From a virus, in the IMG/VR virus record IMGVR_UViG_3300021137_000054, positions 1-34,346 of that record: a stretch of DNA of 34,346 bases; one strand, 5' to 3'. The position numbers and the translations under genes are program-made. Shown here one piece after another: positions 5,507 to 34,346 of the stretch (the stretch's first letter is position 1; every line of letters begins with the position of its first letter). Below the pieces are notes generated by a model. That model did not search any database. It was not told the DNA's origin and saw only the letters and a program-made list of their open reading frames with translations.

Positions 5507-6571
5507 ATGACATATTATATTAAGCAAGGCGACATCTTTAAACCTAGTTCAGAAGCATCTTTAGACATTCGTAATGAATTACCAGTTGGTAATTATACAA
5601 TTGGTAAAGATATGTATGATAACTTCTTTTTTCAAACAGTTGATTCATTTACATTACCTAATAAACGCTATGGTGATAATACCAAATATAGTGAACGTAT
5701 CTTTAATACTTTCGTAAAAAGAGAAAATGCAACTGGTGTTCTATTAACTGGTGAAAAAGGATCTGGTAAAAGTCTATTAGCTAAATGCCTTTCTAGCAAA
5801 GCAGCTGAGAATAATATTCCAACTATTATTATCAATGCACCTTGGCATGGTGATGGATTTAATAACCTAATTCAAAGCATCCAACAACCATGTGTTATAT
5901 TGTTTGATGAGTTTGAAAAAGTATATGATTCACAACAACAAGAAGCAGTTCTTACACTATTAGATGGTACATTCCCATCTAAGAAATTGTTTGTGCTAAC
6001 TTGTAATGATCAGTGGCGTATTGATAGCAATATGCGTAATCGTCCAGGTCGTATTTTTTATTCTATTGAATTTAAAGGTCTATCTGTGGAATTCATTAAA
6101 GAATACTGTGAAGATAAGTTAGAGAATAAAACACATATCGAAACTTTATGTAAAGTATCAACACTTTACGAGCAATTTAACTTTGATATGCTTCAAGGAA
6201 TTGTGGAAGATATGAATCGATATGATGAAAGTCCACAAGAGGCATTGCAATTATTAAATGCTAAACCAGAGTACAGTAATAAAATGTCATTTACTTGTGC
6301 TATGTCATTAAATGGTAGATGGTTGGAACAAAAAGAATTCTACTCTAATGGCTGGCAGGGCAATCCATTGTCTTCTCGTAAAAGCATTGAATATCTTAGA
6401 GTTGACGAAGATGGTGATGAATTCTGGGATAATTATGAACAGTTTGAACATAATGATTTAATTAATGTTGATGCAACCGCTGGTACTTTTACATTTAAAA
6501 ATAACAACGGTAATGTTTTAATCTTGACTAAAAAAACTTATGCGAAACATAATTTCTTTGATGCATTCTAA
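5507..6571 (+). CDS. AAA+ ATPase
   Basis: 354 residues. Walker A GEKGSGKS at 82-89, Walker B ILFDEFEK at 131-138, sensor-1 LFVLTCND at about 161-168, and an arginine-finger region MRNRPGRIF near 176-183: a complete AAA+ core of the kind that remodels proteins or nucleic acid by ATP hydrolysis. The first 70 residues and the last 100 are less conserved and presumably choose the partner. Similar stand-alone AAA+ proteins occur in large phages, where the target is mostly unknown. It does not look like a clamp loader or helicase. Preceded by GAGATTAAA and by membrane-protein genes. Confidence 0.9.
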   Translation: MTYYIKQGDIFKPSSEASLDIRNELPVGNYTIGKDMYDNFFFQTVDSFTLPNKRYGDNTKYSERIFNTFVKRENATGVLLTGEKGSGKSLLAKCLSSKAAENNIPTIIINAPWHGDGFNNLIQSIQQPCVILFDEFEKVYDSQQQEAVLTLLDGTFPSKKLFVLTCNDQWRIDSNMRNRPGRIFYSIEFKGLSVEFIKEYCEDKLENKTHIETLCKVSTLYEQFNFDMLQGIVEDMNRYDESPQEALQLLNAKPEYSNKMSFTCAMSLNGRWLEQKEFYSNGWQGNPLSSRKSIEYLRVDEDGDEFWDNYEQFEHNDLINVDATAGTFTFKNNNGNVLILTKKTYAKHNFFDAF

Positions 6572-11482: not shown

Positions 11483-12337
11483 ATGAAGAAAATTTTAGCA
11501 GTATTAGCATTTGCATTTTTAATAACCGGTTGCAGTGATGTTCCGTCTGGATACGTTGGTATTAAGGTAAATCTTCTTGGTTCTGAAAAAGGGGTAGATC
11601 TACAAGAGTTAGGGACCGGTCGATATTGGATTGGTATTAATGAAAAATTATATACATTTCCGGTATTTTCACAGAACCAAGTTTGGACAAAAGATAGTAA
11701 TGAAGGAAGTCCAAACGATGACAGTGTGACCTTTAATACTGAAGAAGGGCTTTCTGTTAACACCGACATTGGTATATCTTATAGTATAGATCCAAAGCGG
11801 GTATCTCTAATCTTTCAAAAATATAGAAAAGGTATAGATGAAATTACTTCTATATACATGAGAAGCATGGTGCGTGATGCATTAGTAGCAGAAGCATCTT
11901 CTAGGTCAATGGAAAGTATTTATGGTAGAGGAAAAACTGATTTTATAGCTGCTGTCCAACACCGGGTTATATCACAAACAGAACCACTTGGTATAATTGT
12001 AGAGAAGATTTATTTAATTGGTGAGTTAAGATTGCCACAAAGTGTTATTTCTTCGATAAATGCAAAAATTGAAGCCACACAGAAGACAGCACAAAGAGAA
12101 AATGAGGTTGCCCAGTCGAAAGCAGAGGCCGATAAATTAGAGCAAACCGCTAGAGGGGAAGCAAATTCAAAATTGCTTTTAGCAGAAGCGGAAGCCAAAG
12201 CTATTAAAATAAAAGGTGATGCTCTATCAGCTAATCCAAAATTGGTAGAATTATCAGCAGTAGAAAAATGGAACGGGGTTTTACCACAATATATGATGGG
12301 TTCGACAACACCATTTATAAATATGTCTTCAAAATAG
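11483..12337 (+). CDS. SPFH/prohibitin-domain lipoprotein
   Basis: 284 residues. Lipobox LITGC with Cys17, so it is likely cleaved and lipidated. The SPFH (band 7) domain spans roughly 20-200: SGYVGIKVNLLGSEKGV, FNTEEGLSVNTDIGISYSI, then IYLIGELRLPQSV. A long Ala/Glu/Lys coiled coil (about 200-250) follows, as in HflK/HflC and prohibitins, which form ring assemblies in membranes and restrain proteases. Prohibitin-like proteins occur in many large phages; protection of phage proteins or superinfection control is conjecture. The ribosome site is AGAGAGTAAAAC. Confidence 0.9.
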   Translation: MKKILAVLAFAFLITGCSDVPSGYVGIKVNLLGSEKGVDLQELGTGRYWIGINEKLYTFPVFSQNQVWTKDSNEGSPNDDSVTFNTEEGLSVNTDIGISYSIDPKRVSLIFQKYRKGIDEITSIYMRSMVRDALVAEASSRSMESIYGRGKTDFIAAVQHRVISQTEPLGIIVEKIYLIGELRLPQSVISSINAKIEATQKTAQRENEVAQSKAEADKLEQTARGEANSKLLLAEAEAKAIKIKGDALSANPKLVELSAVEKWNGVLPQYMMGSTTPFINMSSK

Positions 12338-12384: not shown

Positions 12385-13350
12385 TTATTTTGGATGATTG
12401 CGATTATAAGTTTCTTTATATTTTAATCTTGACTGCAGTTTTTGTTCGGCGGTCCTACCACTTTTTGTTTGTTTTTCTTTCCGTTTTCGTTCATTCTCCT
12501 GTTCAGGAGTTCTAGCAGCATGAGAATTTTTTAGTTTTAGTGTTATTACTAATTTTTCTTCTGGTGTTTTAGCATCAAATGTAGCTTTGCGCTTTGCTAT
12601 AATATCTAATTTTTCTTCTAACGGTTTTGCCTCGATGGTTGCTTTAAGTGTTGTTTTTTGTTTTTCTATTTGAGTTTGTTTTTCTTCAGGTGACCTAGCA
12701 TTCTTTGTTTTCCATTCTTTTTGTTTAGTTTCCAATTTTTCTTCTGATGTTCTATTAATTTTAGCTAATCTTTGTTTTTCTTTCGTTGCTAATTTTTCCT
12801 CTGGAGATTTTGCATCTTCTGTAGCTTTTTTCTTTGCATTGACCAATAATCTTTCTGCTGGGGTTCTTGAAGTTTTTGCTAGTCGTTGCTTTTCTTTAAT
12901 TGTATAGTTTTCTTCTGCACTTCTAGCTGCTTCTGTAGCTTTTTTCTTTTCTGCAATTAATGTTTTTTCATACAAACATTTAGCCTTTCTAGTTATTGCA
13001 GTTTTTGCAATAGAATCTTCAGTAGCATGAAATTTATTACCACCGTTATTTTTATTAAGCCAATATGGACTTTTCGCTGCATTAATTCTTGTTAAGAACT
13101 TATGTTCCCAAGCGACTGTATCTTTTCTAGTTTTAAATATTTTTCGTATTTGAACAGAAAATAATTCCTTGCCATGTAGAGCAATTAGATTTTTTATTTC
13201 TTTTGATGATGTAAAATATGTCACCCAAAACTCAGTTGGATTTGCCACATTTTTTCTACTATTTGCATACCTACATCCGTAATAACGTTGGCCGGTTATT
13301 AGAAATGTTATGCAATATGTATACGGGACATAAATAAGTTTGTTGGTCAT
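12385..13350 (-). CDS. GIY-YIG endonuclease with nine 19-residue repeats
   Basis: 321 residues. Catalytic domain 1-110: YTYCITFLITGQRYYGCRYA (GIY and YIG as YTY/YYG with Arg), ALHGKELFSVQI, WEHKFL with the metal-binding Glu, NKNNGG. From about residue 140 to the end there are roughly nine tandem repeats of 19-21 residues with the consensus A-[RK]-[ST]-[PA]-E-E-K-L then a basic run. They resemble NUMOD3-type helices that track along DNA, but regular tandem copies in this number are unusual. Its leader has the hairpin shared by the other GIY-YIG genes. Confidence 0.85.
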   Translation of the reverse strand: MTNKLIYVPYTYCITFLITGQRYYGCRYANSRKNVANPTEFWVTYFTSSKEIKNLIALHGKELFSVQIRKIFKTRKDTVAWEHKFLTRINAAKSPYWLNKNNGGNKFHATEDSIAKTAITRKAKCLYEKTLIAEKKKATEAARSAEENYTIKEKQRLAKTSRTPAERLLVNAKKKATEDAKSPEEKLATKEKQRLAKINRTSEEKLETKQKEWKTKNARSPEEKQTQIEKQKTTLKATIEAKPLEEKLDIIAKRKATFDAKTPEEKLVITLKLKNSHAARTPEQENERKRKEKQTKSGRTAEQKLQSRLKYKETYNRNHPK

Positions 13351-21927: not shown

Positions 21928-22746
21928 ATGATGAGAATACTAGTTACCGGCGCCAACGGGTTCATTGGACGAAATATGCTTGAATGGTTAGCACAAGAAG
22001 AATTCTGGGATGTTGAAATCTGGAACTGGGATCCAAATAACTATCCTGATGTACGACGATATAAATGGGTTATCCACTTAGGAGCGGTTACCGATACTAG
22101 TGATAAAGATGTTGATACCATTATACACAAAAACTATGAGTTTAGTCAATGGCTTTTTCAAGAATGCAATAAAAATAAAGTTCATTTGCAATATGCGAGT
22201 ACACATGATGTATATGGAACTAATAAGAATTTTAGTGAATTTGCACCTTGTCATCCACATACCCCATATGCTTGGTCAAAATACTTATTTGATAGATGGG
22301 TTTTTCAACAAGAACACAGTGTTTATGTCCAAGGATTCAGGTACTTCAATGTATATGGAAAATATATGTATACCAAGGGAAGTCGTGCAGATATTATGTA
22401 TAAATGGAGAGAAGAAGCAAAGTCAACTGGAACTATAAAAGTATGGAATAATGCAGAACACATAAAACGCGATTGGGTATGGGTTGGTGATGTTTGTAGA
22501 TTACATATTGATTTTATTAAACAAGTCAATGGATCTGGAATCTGGAATGTTGGGACTGGGTTATCACACTCGTATTTTGACATCGCTACTGAAATAGCAG
22601 AACAAGAAGATGCTGTTATAGAATTTGTAGAAGCTGGTACTACAGAAAGATATGATGTAAAGGCAGATTTGAAACATCTTAAAGCAACTATTGGAAAACG
22701 TAAATGGTTGAATATATATGAATGGATTGATAGACGAAATGGATAA
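21928..22746 (+). CDS. hldD: NAD(P)-dependent sugar epimerase, HldD-like
   Basis: 272 residues, extended SDR fold. Cofactor motif G-A-N-G-F-I-G at 8-14, active-site S91/T92, Y114 and K118 (YAWSK), then the HldD-type blocks GFRYFNVYGKY and KRDWVWVGDV. HldD converts ADP-D-glycero-manno-heptose to the L-form for LPS inner core. The protein is about 40 residues shorter than bacterial HldD, so another NDP-sugar is possible. In a phage it could alter host LPS after infection or build a glycan. No Shine-Dalgarno: the start directly follows AATAAATA. Confidence 0.8.
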   Translation: MMRILVTGANGFIGRNMLEWLAQEEFWDVEIWNWDPNNYPDVRRYKWVIHLGAVTDTSDKDVDTIIHKNYEFSQWLFQECNKNKVHLQYASTHDVYGTNKNFSEFAPCHPHTPYAWSKYLFDRWVFQQEHSVYVQGFRYFNVYGKYMYTKGSRADIMYKWREEAKSTGTIKVWNNAEHIKRDWVWVGDVCRLHIDFIKQVNGSGIWNVGTGLSHSYFDIATEIAEQEDAVIEFVEAGTTERYDVKADLKHLKATIGKRKWLNIYEWIDRRNG

Positions 22747-27730: not shown

Positions 27731-27798
27731 GCTGATGTCCTCCATAGACGTTAGAGTAGTTGGGAACGTCAATTCCGTGAACTACATCTTTATTTATC
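27731..27798 (-). ncRNA. Structured 5' leader of GIY-YIG gene (copy C)
   Basis: Minus strand: GATAAATAAAGAT box, outer stem GTAGTT/AACTAC (27756-27761 with 27780-27785), CAC against C, inner stem GGAA/TTCC (27763-27766 with 27773-27776), loop TTGACG; then GTC...GAC around ATGGAG and ATG. It survives although its gene is truncated. Confidence 0.65.
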
Positions 27799-29002
27799 TC
27801 GAATACCTTTTCATTACGATAGTCAACGTTTCAACAAGATCGGAAATCATACCATCGGTGTGGTTCGGAGTAGGGGCGAACCTCAATCGTTCAGTACCAA
27901 CTTCAACTGTAGGAAAATTTATGGCTTGAACGTAAATGTTATAATCATTTAACAAAATATCACTTATCTCTTTGGCTTTCTTTGCATCACCAATTATTAC
28001 TGGAACAATGTGGGTTTTTCCATCCATCACTGGTATATTGTATTCTCTCATAAGAAATCTTAATTTATTCGCACGTTCTTTAATTTTCTCTCTTATTTCA
28101 TTATGATCTTTTAAATATTTCACAGCAGCCAATGCACCAGCACATATTACTGGACTTAGTGATGTTGAGAATATAAACCCAGCCGCAATACTTCTGATTG
28201 CATCTACTACGATGGCATCAGCAGCAATATATCCACCCTGAACTCCATATGCCTTACCTAATGTTCCATTAACAATATCAACTCGATCTTGTAATCCAAG
28301 TTCTTCTAATAATCCAGCACCAGTTGGACCTATTACGCCTATGGAGTGGACTTCATCAAGATATGTTATGGCATTATACATATCAGCTAAATCACAAATT
28401 TCTTTAATATGGCTAATATCACCATCCATACTGTATACACTTTCAAACACTATACAAGGAGTATTCCCATTTTCAACTGCTTTCTTTAAACAACTTTCTA
28501 AATCTTCTAAATCATTATGTCTGAATATTTGTTTTGGTGCTCTACTATAACTCATACCAACAATTAGACTATTATGATTTTTGCTATCACTAATAAATTC
28601 AATATTGTTAATGATCTTAGATAATGAAATCAATGATGACTCATTTGCCACATATGCTGAAGTAAATAACAATGCTTTTTCTTTCTTATGTAATGATGCC
28701 AATTCATGTTCAAGTGCAACGTGGTAATGGCTAGTACCAGATATATTTCTAGTACCACCAGACCCAGCACCAGTCATATCTAATGCTGTTCTCATTGCAT
28801 CTAATACTACTTTAGACTGACCCATGCCCAAATAATCATTTGAACACCAATTGACAATGTTCTTAATAGCATATGGGCCATACCATATTGCATTAGGAAA
28901 TTTACCTTGTTCTCGCAGTATGTCATTGAAAACACGATACTTTCCATTATCTTTTAAATTTTGTATTAAATTGTTGAAAGGAGTTTTATTAATCATTTCC
29001 AT
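27794..29002 (-). CDS. hemA: 5-aminolevulinate synthase (C4 pathway)
   Basis: 402 residues, full length for bacterial ALAS. It condenses glycine and succinyl-CoA to 5-aminolevulinate, the first tetrapyrrole precursor. Seen: WCSNDYLGMGQ, GAGSGGTRNISGT, PLP ring-binding DEVHSIG (D216, H219), catalytic Lys250 in NGTLGKAYGVQGG, and FIFSTSLSP. AONS/KBL relatives share the fold, but NDYLGM, GGTRNISGT and the C-terminal RLRFAPTPNH favour ALAS. All key residues are intact, so it is probably active and would raise host haem or other tetrapyrrole supply during infection. Starts ATG 29002 (ATG 28996 is possible). Confidence 0.93.
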   Translation of the reverse strand: MEMINKTPFNNLIQNLKDNGKYRVFNDILREQGKFPNAIWYGPYAIKNIVNWCSNDYLGMGQSKVVLDAMRTALDMTGAGSGGTRNISGTSHYHVALEHELASLHKKEKALLFTSAYVANESSLISLSKIINNIEFISDSKNHNSLIVGMSYSRAPKQIFRHNDLEDLESCLKKAVENGNTPCIVFESVYSMDGDISHIKEICDLADMYNAITYLDEVHSIGVIGPTGAGLLEELGLQDRVDIVNGTLGKAYGVQGGYIAADAIVVDAIRSIAAGFIFSTSLSPVICAGALAAVKYLKDHNEIREKIKERANKLRFLMREYNIPVMDGKTHIVPVIIGDAKKAKEISDILLNDYNIYVQAINFPTVEVGTERLRFAPTPNHTDGMISDLVETLTIVMKRYSR

Positions 29003-32745: not shown

Positions 32746-32994
32746 TTATTTCTTACCTACAAATTCATTCATGCTATTTGCAATATCAAGAACTTTTTCA
32801 ATGGTTGGAAAATCTGGTCTGTCTGGTGGAATAGTAAATCTATCTAGTTGTTCTAGCATCAAATATAGTTCATACTCTCTAAATCGTGCATTAAAATCAC
32901 TTATTGCTAAATCTTTAGACATTGCTAGTATATCAGTTCTGATATCATAACCCGTTTTACCACTTGTTTTTACTTCCCTGCTTTGTAATGACAT
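32746..32994 (-). CDS. Conserved phage protein, 82 aa
   Basis: MSLQSREVKTSGKTGYDIRT, then helical, ending IANSMNEFVGKK. The GKTGYDIRxDIL start is shared by small proteins of aquatic T4-like phages. Ribosome site AAGGAGAATATT, own promoter at 33036-33064. Function unknown. Confidence 0.75.
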   Translation of the reverse strand: MSLQSREVKTSGKTGYDIRTDILAMSKDLAISDFNARFREYELYLMLEQLDRFTIPPDRPDFPTIEKVLDIANSMNEFVGKK

Positions 32995-33035
32995 AATATT
33001 CTCCTTGTGTTCTTTAATTAAATAGTAAAAATGAT

Positions 33036-33064
33036 ATTATAGTATATTTTGTTATGGTTGTCAA
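33036..33064 (-). promoter_or_regulatory. Sigma70-type promoter (minus strand)
   Basis: Minus strand TTGACA (33064-33059), 17 bases, TATAAT (33041-33036), 41 bases before ATG 32994. Confidence 0.85.
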
Positions 33065-33069
33065 GTCTC

Positions 33070-33077
33070 TATAAATA
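33070..33077 (+). promoter_or_regulatory. T4 late promoter, exact TATAAATA
   Basis: TATAAATA ends six bases before ATG 33084. Transcription from it would start at or near the start codon, giving a leaderless or very short-leader message; no Shine-Dalgarno is seen. Confidence 0.55.
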
Positions 33078-33083
33078 ATTTAA

Positions 33084-34346
33084 ATGAAAACAATAATTAA
33101 ATCAAGTCAACATAATATCAAATTTGCTAATATTGGTAAACAACTGATATTAAAAGAATTCATTACCGAATATGATCGGGTATTGTGGTGGTTTGTTGAT
33201 TATTTATGGAATAATAAAATCATTTGGGGCAATAATAGAACTTTAGATATCAAAAATAATAAATTAGATGTTCCAAGTTTTATTTCTACCACTGATATCG
33301 ATTTAATTACCGATCTTTCAGCAAGGGCAATTAAATTAGCGTCAGGGGAAGCTCTGGCAATTATCAAAAGTAGAACAGAAAAACGAAGAAAACAATTATT
33401 TGTTCTCGCTAAACAAATGCGTGCTGGTGATAAATCTATTTCAAAATTACAATCAAAAATTGATAGTAATCCATTATCAAAACCAACACGAAATAGCAAT
33501 AATTTAGTAGCAAATTTGGATAGTAATTGCTGTAAATATATCCCAGATACCACTGGTATCTTTGATGGATGGCTGAAATTATCATCACTTGGTAAAAGGT
33601 ATGGACATATTTATATACCAATTAAAACAACAAGGCATTCAAATCAATTAGCCAAGAAAGGTTATAAAATGATTACTAGTTGGCAGATTTCTACTAACAC
33701 TTTATATTCCAGATGGGAAACTACACGAGAGAAATCAACTGGTAGTAAAATCATTGGTGCAGACCAAGGATATGTTACTTGCTTATCATTAAGTGATGGA
33801 CAAACAACTAGTGCTGATATGCATGGTCATGATTTACATAGTATAATCAATAAGTTATCATATAAAAAGAAAGGCAGTAATGGCTTTAAACGAGTACAGG
33901 AACACCGAACAAATTATATCAATTGGTCCATAAATCAATTGGATTTATCAAATATAAAAGAACTCAGATTAGAAAAGTTATTTCAAATGAGAAAAGGTTC
34001 TAATATGGGAAGAAATTTAAGTCATTGGACTTATACACAAATCAATGCACAGATAATGAAGCGATGTGAAGAACTGGGTGTCCCAGTAATCGAGCAATCG
34101 GCTAGTTATAGAAGTCAAAGATGTAGTGATTGTGGATGGACCCAAAAATCAAATAGGAAGGGAAAGGAGTTTATATGCAATCAATGTGGCGTATGCCATG
34201 ATGCCGATATAAATGGCGCCCTAAATCATGAAGCCGACTTATATCGGCTCCCTGTTGGTTTTTGGCAGAACAAATTTAATATCAAGGGGTTCTATTGGAC
34301 TTCTAGAATGGTATTAGATTTATCTGGTGCGGAGCTTATAGTCCCG
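33084..34346 (+). CDS. tnpB: TnpB-like RuvC nuclease (IS605 OrfB family), partial at window edge
   Basis: 421 residues visible, no stop before the edge. RuvC pieces in order: IIGADQGYVTCLSLSDG with D227, LRLEKLFQMRKG with E297, a zinc finger C347-x2-C350...C365-x2-C368 (CSDCGW, CNQCG), and HDADINGALNH with D375: the complete catalytic triad. TnpB is an RNA-guided DNA nuclease whose guide RNA (omegaRNA) usually overlaps the 3' end, here near or past the edge. No TnpA gene is near. Presence in the late region suggests homing or another phage-selfish role. Confidence 0.88.
   Translation, partial: MKTIIKSSQHNIKFANIGKQLILKEFITEYDRVLWWFVDYLWNNKIIWGNNRTLDIKNNKLDVPSFISTTDIDLITDLSARAIKLASGEALAIIKSRTEKRRKQLFVLAKQMRAGDKSISKLQSKIDSNPLSKPTRNSNNLVANLDSNCCKYIPDTTGIFDGWLKLSSLGKRYGHIYIPIKTTRHSNQLAKKGYKMITSWQISTNTLYSRWETTREKSTGSKIIGADQGYVTCLSLSDGQTTSADMHGHDLHSIINKLSYKKKGSNGFKRVQEHRTNYINWSINQLDLSNIKELRLEKLFQMRKGSNMGRNLSHWTYTQINAQIMKRCEELGVPVIEQSASYRSQRCSDCGWTQKSNRKGKEFICNQCGVCHDADINGALNHEADLYRLPVGFWQNKFNIKGFYWTSRMVLDLSGAELIVP

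What the first reader, a model, noticed from the sequence alone, without database searches (positions are those of the whole stretch)
33084..34346. Phage-borne TnpB-like nuclease without TnpA, behind an exact late promoter
The full RuvC triad (D227, E297, D375) and zinc finger are visible. No transposase TnpA is seen in the window. An exact TATAAATA lies six bases before the ATG. TnpB proteins are RNA-guided nucleases (established for IS200/IS605). A stand-alone late-expressed copy could work as a homing device or against rivals. The guide RNA should lie at or beyond the right edge.
Basis: partly seen in the sequence, partly recalled or inferred. Interest (0 to 1): 0.75.

Follow-up and report, generated by a model that had tools for sequence, protein, structure and literature searches.

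The report
Transposase-less phage TnpB from IS607
A freshwater phage carries a lone RNA-guided DNA-cutting gene, TnpB, left over from an IS607-type jumping gene that lost its transposase; its guide RNA is intact and points at the gene's own insertion site, so it most likely spreads by cutting related phages that lack it.

Summary
The gene is real. The window's contig stops inside it; identical public contigs give the full 426-aa protein with an intact RuvC triad (D227, E297, D375) and zinc finger, invariant in 22 homologs, and a confident TnpB/Cas12f-like fold. No TnpA lies in the window or the 76-kb sister contig. The family is not IS200/IS605: twelve of 22 homologs sit behind an IS607 serine recombinase, three keep remnants, this copy has none. 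Near-complete relatives occur in phage contigs and almost nowhere in 84,980 prokaryote genomes. The omegaRNA overlaps the gene's 3' end, has a strongly covarying hairpin, and ends in AACT 12 nt after the stop. The next bases, the guide (GTATGTCTGTGAATAT), are the native leader sequence of this locus in related phages lacking tnpB (109-bp intergenic region there, 1,471 bp here). Best reading: a transposase-free, RNA-guided homing element aimed at tnpB-less siblings. Purifying selection (dN/dS 0.18 between the two closest solo copies) argues against a dead relic. The 'exact late promoter' is weak: TATAAATA occurs at chance frequency and lies 6 nt from the ATG, whereas real late promoters here lie 16-19 nt away. 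Cleavage, TAM and homing are untested.

The parts
33006..34346 (+). Inserted element, left junction to window edge. Whole element = L003 4923-6293, 1371 bp; its last 30 bp lie beyond the window.
   Evidence: Intergenic region between the 82-aa and 84-aa genes is 1471 bp here and 109 bp in relative L080. Right flank from the base after AACT matches relatives' intergenic DNA along its length (0/300 shuffles); left homology ends at TTCTCCT.
33084..34346 (+). tnpB-like RNA-guided nuclease gene, cut by the contig end (complete: 426 aa, L003 5001-6281)
33762..33764 (+). codon of catalytic D227 (RuvC-I)
   Evidence: invariant in 22 homologs
33972..33974 (+). codon of catalytic E297 (RuvC-II)
   Evidence: invariant
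34206..34208 (+). codon of catalytic D375 (RuvC-III)
   Evidence: invariant
34122..34187 (+). zinc-finger codons C347, C350, C365, C368
   Evidence: invariant
34232..34346 (+). omegaRNA scaffold overlapping the tnpB 3' end (continues to window-equivalent 34376 in L003; 3' end AACT)
   Evidence: Conserved 3' region in 21 homologs; L003 fold z = -3.62, 0/200 shuffles; lowered synonymous divergence over aa 361-420; model R1 hit at window 34320-34346 cut by the edge.
34232..34249 (+). 5' hairpin AGCCGA-CTTATA-TCGGCT; AGTGGA/TCCGCT in L004 and AGTTGA/TCAACT in L094 (compensatory)
34327..34346 (+). Conserved omegaRNA hairpin GTGCGGAGCTTATAGTCCCGCAT (last 3 nt beyond the window)
   Evidence: 93.5% of cells paired, 27 cells changed on both sides, covariation score 0.586 against 0.254 in shuffles, 0/500
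33070..33077 (+). TATAAATA; chance-level motif, 6 nt before the ATG, no ribosome-binding site
33036..33064 (-). sigma70-like promoter (TTGACA, 17 nt, TATAAT) in the element's left part, pointing at the 82-aa gene
   Evidence: read from the sequence; function inferred
32746..32994 (-). 82-aa gene left of the element; the element lies between its ribosome-binding site and the native promoter

Best explanation
A transposase-free, RNA-guided homing element. The TnpB protein binds an omegaRNA transcribed from the 3' end of its own gene. That RNA ends in AACT at the element's right end, and the following bases of phage DNA (GTATGTCTGTGAATAT...) form the guide. Because the guide is the flank of the insertion site, TnpB spares the interrupted allele and cuts the uninterrupted allele of sibling phages during co-infection. 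Recombination repair, frequent in T4-like phages, then copies the element in. It descends from a phage-borne IS607 element whose serine transposase was lost. Shown: intact nuclease sequence and predicted fold, covarying omegaRNA, right boundary, tnpB-less relatives, IS607 ancestry, purifying selection. Inferred: expression, cleavage, TAM, homing.
For: Triad and zinc finger invariant. Model pLDDT 89.7; best matches are Cas12f (Z 18.5), ISDra2 TnpB (Z 15.0) and ISFba1 IS607 TnpB (Z 14.9). omegaRNA hairpin covariation. One adjacent omegaRNA per family tnpB and none standing alone. L104 and L109 are near identical up to GTTAACTC and then diverge, marking the right end. L003's right flank begins exactly at AACT|GTATGTC with the native intergenic sequence of relatives. 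tnpB-less relatives share the first 10-13 guide bases at the same site. dN/dS is 0.18 between solo L003 and L004. No TnpA in the 76.6-kb or the 327-kb record. TnpB gene-drive activity is reported in plasmids (PMC11870625).
Against: No cleavage shown and the TAM is unknown. The exact 18-nt guide occurs nowhere else in IMG/VR. In the closest empty alleles two extra bases (GT) stand between TTCTCCT and GTATGTC, so the true ancestral target was not sampled. Loss of tnpA may be recent relative to the L003/L004 split, so part of the selection signal may predate it. There is no ribosome-binding site before the ATG. The contigs are fragments, so a TnpA elsewhere in the phage is not excluded.
Confidence: 0.68

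Rival explanations
1. Stranded IS607 relic: a former transposon copy that lost tnpA and is now immobile and decaying, or a non-autonomous copy moved only by a TnpA in trans.
For: Decay series in relatives: L008 keeps only the TnpA HTH, L102 only the catalytic part, L106 a fragment with a stop; tnpB itself is frameshifted in L111/L112. Solo copies are scattered over the tree among tnpA-bearing ones.
Against: L003 and L004, sister solo copies, keep open frames, the triad, the omegaRNA and dN/dS 0.18. No TnpA in the records.
Confidence: 0.17
2. Phage-versus-phage weapon: TnpB kept mainly to destroy related phages lacking the element (exclusion in co-infection), with copying of the gene secondary.
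For: The guide seed matches a leader sequence conserved in at least nine related contigs; several large phages carry 4-8 TnpB-domain genes.
Against: The match beyond the seed is poor in all sampled relatives (at best 14 of 16 nt, L019), so reach would be narrow; the mechanism is otherwise the same as homing.
Confidence: 0.1
3. RNA-guided regulator (TldR-like) or type V CRISPR effector of the phage.
For: The fold is closest to Cas12f; phage TldRs exist (PMC13418256).
Against: RuvC triad intact, unlike TldR; no CRISPR-like repeat array in the window or the flanking loci searched; the omegaRNA is adjacent and the guide is the insertion flank.
Confidence: 0.05

Closest known systems
IS607-family TnpB with RAGATH-18 reRNA (ISFba1 TnpB; PMC11061315, PDB 8iaz)
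   Same: IS607 ancestry, RuvC nuclease of similar length, reRNA at the 3' end, fold match Z 14.9
   Different: Ours has no RAGATH-18 match near the gene (RF03064 searched directly; Rfam scan). Its omegaRNA overlaps the coding sequence, whereas the paper states that the IS607 reRNA is independent of it. No TnpA in this copy, and a phage-confined clade.
IS200/IS605 TnpB (ISDra2; PDB 8h1j, 8exa)
   Same: Triad, zinc finger, fold (Z 15.0), omegaRNA at the right end with the guide as flank
   Different: Relatives carry a serine recombinase, not a Y1 transposase
TnpB gene drive in plasmids (PMC11870625)
   Same: Guide records the insertion site and cuts element-free copies
   Different: There TnpA is present and the arena is plasmids; here solo and in phage co-infection (inferred)
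T4-type free-standing homing endonucleases (SegE/GIY-YIG, HNH); general knowledge
   Same: Lone nuclease gene between phage genes, expected to invade endonuclease-less alleles
   Different: Target chosen by RNA rather than by protein-DNA contacts
Fanzor2 (PDB 9b0l)
   Same: TnpB-like nuclease in a virus, fold Z 15.1
   Different: Eukaryotic giant virus, distant sequence

Membership tests
TnpB RNA-guided nucleases | RuvC D-E-D triad and C4 zinc finger | tested here: met
   Invariant in 22 homologs; PF07282 above cut-off
TnpB RNA-guided nucleases | Curated full-length model NF040570 at its cut-off (100 bits) | tested here: not met
   66.8 bits, E 2e-18: related but a divergent branch
TnpB RNA-guided nucleases | TnpB/Cas12f fold over the full length | tested here: met
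   pLDDT 89.7; Z 15.0 to 8h1j over 312 residues
TnpB RNA-guided nucleases | omegaRNA at the element's 3' end, guide = flanking DNA | tested here: met
   Covarying hairpin, sharp right end AACT; transcription itself not tested
TnpB RNA-guided nucleases | RNA-guided, TAM-dependent DNA cleavage | not testable with these tools
   Needs biochemistry
IS607 insertion sequences | Serine-recombinase TnpA upstream of tnpB in this element | tested here: not met
   None in the window or sister contig; present in 12 of 22 aligned homologs incl. L093 (67% identical) and L094. So: IS607-derived, not an IS607 element.
IS607 insertion sequences | Ends without inverted repeats, no target duplication, shared dinucleotide core | tested here: inconclusive
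   Right end AACT and left junction TTCTCCT share CT; no duplication seen, but the exact empty allele is not sampled. Known IS607 elements use GG.
IS200/IS605 elements | Y1 HUH TnpA and hairpin ends | tested here: inconclusive
   Relatives carry the IS607 recombinase instead; no direct Y1 search was run
RAGATH-18-guided IS607 TnpB | RAGATH-18 RNA next to the gene | tested here: not met
   No RF03064 match near tnpB in eight records, best elsewhere E 0.14, below cut-off
TldR repressors | Inactivated RuvC triad | tested here: not met
   Triad intact
Type V CRISPR-Cas | Adjacent repeat-spacer array | tested here: not met
   No such repeats in the window, L003 or L004 loci

The most novel reading that the evidence does not exclude
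A phage-confined branch of IS607 TnpB has repeatedly shed its transposase and persists as RNA-guided, transposase-free homing endonucleases, several per genome in some large phages, with an omegaRNA folded into the tnpB coding sequence rather than RAGATH-18.
Probability: 0.5. Interest if true: 0.72.

Novelty: new variant of a known kind. Interest (0 to 1): 0.5.

Why it matters
TnpB is usually explained as a helper that keeps its transposon from being lost. A lineage that keeps TnpB, guide RNA and selection after losing the transposase, inside large T4-like phages, would make TnpB a self-sufficient RNA-guided selfish gene comparable with phage homing endonucleases. That can be tested directly by co-infection. 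It also offers a compact nuclease family with a guide scaffold unlike RAGATH-18.

Tried and rejected
Late-promoter idea: TATAAATA at chance frequency and at unusual spacing. IS200/IS605 origin: replaced by IS607. Exact guide search in IMG/VR: only its own contigs; a looser empty-site pattern found only the L019 contig. Empty site for L004 through its right-hand neighbour gene: only its own contig. First prokaryote-genome scan: none; the second found L122 (47% over a part; Bacteroidales MAG contig, possibly phage), L123 (28%; Moraxella MAG) and otherwise only distant TnpBs. Duplication of the promoter region on both sides of tnpB was considered: left-right similarity does not beat shuffles (143/500 local, 49/500 global), so simple insertion after TTCTCCT is preferred. 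L004's right end is ambiguous (AACT at 6286 or 6322). Left ends and TAM could not be fixed across the family. Rfam scan: no known RNA family at the right end.

Full report
What is there. The ORF at 33084 runs off the right edge of the window. Two other IMG/VR contigs hold the same sequence and continue: the gene is 426 aa, stops at L003 6281 (window-equivalent 34364), and is followed after 101 bp by an 84-aa phage gene. Pfam places it in the Cas12f1-like/TnpB zinc-ribbon family. It scores below the curated full-length TnpB model (66.8 against 100 bits), so it is a divergent branch. In a 22-sequence alignment D227, E297, D375 and four cysteines are invariant. An AlphaFold model (pLDDT 89.7) matches Cas12f, ISDra2 TnpB, the IS607 TnpB ISFba1 and Fanzor2 over most of its length.

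Family and distribution. A scan of viral contigs gave 29 full or partial close homologs, 32-68% identical apart from the identical copies, plus three distant ones. The same query found none in 84,980 prokaryote genomes. A broader query found two: a partial 47% match in a 9.8-kb Bacteroidales MAG contig and a 28% match in a Moraxella MAG contig. Everything else listed there is distant TnpB matching mainly the C-terminal domain. The branch is therefore largely phage-confined in the collections held. Patterns were used for the scans, so absence is not absolute.

IS607, not IS605. Twelve of the 22 aligned homologs have a serine-recombinase TnpA directly upstream. That of L009 passes the IS607 transposase model (174.8 bits, cut-off 110), and whole-record searches agree (13 of 24 records over cut-off). 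L008, L102 and L106 keep fragments. L003 (the window's element), L004, L100, L103, L107 and L115 have none. In the maximum-likelihood tree L003 and L004 are sisters (95/90), next to tnpA-bearing L093 and L094. 'Solo' needs at least five changes on the tree, so loss recurred. No TnpA occurs anywhere in the 76.6-kb L003 record or the 327-kb L004 record.

omegaRNA. The 3' ends of the homologs share a conserved region that overlaps the end of the coding sequence and in nearly all ends in (T)AACT near the stop. A hairpin around GGAGCTTATAGTCCC covaries strongly: 93.5% of cells paired, 27 cells changed on both sides, covariation 0.586 against 0.254 in shuffles (0/500) and at most 0.171 in slid controls. 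A 5' hairpin shows compensatory changes among close relatives: AGCCGA/TCGGCT in L003, AGTGGA/TCCGCT in L004, AGTTGA/TCAACT in L094. Single folds beat shuffles in four of five tested (z -3.6 to -5.2; L009 -0.4). Synonymous divergence between L003 and L004 falls from about 0.5-0.9 to about 0.3 over aa 361-420, and over aa 391-420 amino acids change as fast as silent sites, as expected if RNA structure constrains the DNA there. A covariance model finds one such RNA beside each family tnpB and none standing alone. It is not RAGATH-18, the RNA of the characterised IS607 TnpBs, which lies outside the coding sequence (PMC11061315).

Boundary and guide. L104 and L109, related elements at different sites, agree up to GTTAACTC and then diverge. 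In L003 the RNA ends ...TTTATACAAACT and is followed by GTATGTCTGTGAATATATAT. The flanking 84-aa gene led to 80 loci. In L080 an 82-aa-like gene and the 84-aa gene are separated by 109 bp, against 1471 bp here. From its first base the right flank of the element aligns with the whole intergenic region of relatives (0/300 shuffles for all five tested), while the left flank shares essentially only TTCTCCT. So the element (about 1371 bp) sits in the leader of the 82-aa gene, between its ribosome-binding site and its native promoter. The left part of the element offers a consensus-like replacement promoter (TTGACA, 17 nt, TATAAT, minus strand, read from the sequence). The guide's first 10 bases are conserved in the tnpB-less relatives with this leader and its first 13 in L019. 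The exact 18-mer is found only next to the element itself. The relatives have two extra bases before GTATGTC, so the true empty allele and the TAM remain unsampled.

Mechanism. By established TnpB biology (guide = flank; cutting of element-free copies; gene drive in plasmids, PMC11870625), the best reading is RNA-guided homing into tnpB-less sibling phages by cutting and recombination repair. The two closest solo copies are under purifying selection (dN/dS 0.18), like tnpA-bearing pairs (L104/L109 0.18, L009/L110 0.05). A relic is therefore less likely, although part of that signal may predate tnpA loss. A regulator is unlikely with an intact triad, and no CRISPR-like array was seen.

Promoter claim. 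TATAAATA occurs 10 times in the window against 10.9 expected. The neighbouring 84-aa gene has a real conserved late-type motif: 46 of 54 distinct upstreams carry ATAAATA, 44 of them 16-19 nt before the ATG, and 0 of 79 in the control stretch. The tnpB copy of the motif is 6 nt from the ATG and is not shared by L004. Some relatives' records hold a T4-type gp23 gene, so late promoters are plausible for the group, but late expression of tnpB is not supported.

Verdict. A genuine, intact-looking, transposase-less TnpB of a phage-confined IS607-derived branch, with its guide RNA and probable target identified. TnpB in phages is known (for example PMC12607003 reports phage TnpBs), and solo TnpBs are common by general knowledge. 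The variant aspects are the phage-confined IS607 branch, the coding-overlapping non-RAGATH-18 omegaRNA, and recurrent loss of the transposase with continued selection.

Noticed in passing
window 12385-13350 (-): SegE-like GIY-YIG homing endonuclease (PF19835) overlapping a cluster of ~57-nt direct repeats (12494-12949): a second, protein-guided homing-type nuclease in the same phage.
   Followed up: partly
records of L110 (186 kb) and L114 (260 kb): Each carries eight TnpB-domain genes, more than its one to three IS607 transposases; L094, L103 and L004 records carry four to five.
   Followed up: partly
L111/L112 3001-4231: Family tnpB broken by a stop or frameshift while the omegaRNA model still matches; the same record has a second omegaRNA with a truncated tnpB.
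   Followed up: no
L008, L102, L106: Stages of tnpA decay upstream of intact tnpB: HTH only, catalytic part only, fragment with a stop.
   Followed up: partly
L104 4356-6009, L093 4501-5865: Elements with tnpA inserted beside phage tRNA clusters.
   Followed up: no
window 11483-12337, 21928-22746, 27794-29002: Band_7/SPFH protein, NAD-dependent epimerase and class I/II aminotransferase genes in the phage.
   Followed up: no
L004 4690-4851 and 2409-2574: Repeated CTAAAAGATnATGnTGTCAAG motifs, probably the phage's own early promoters.
   Followed up: no
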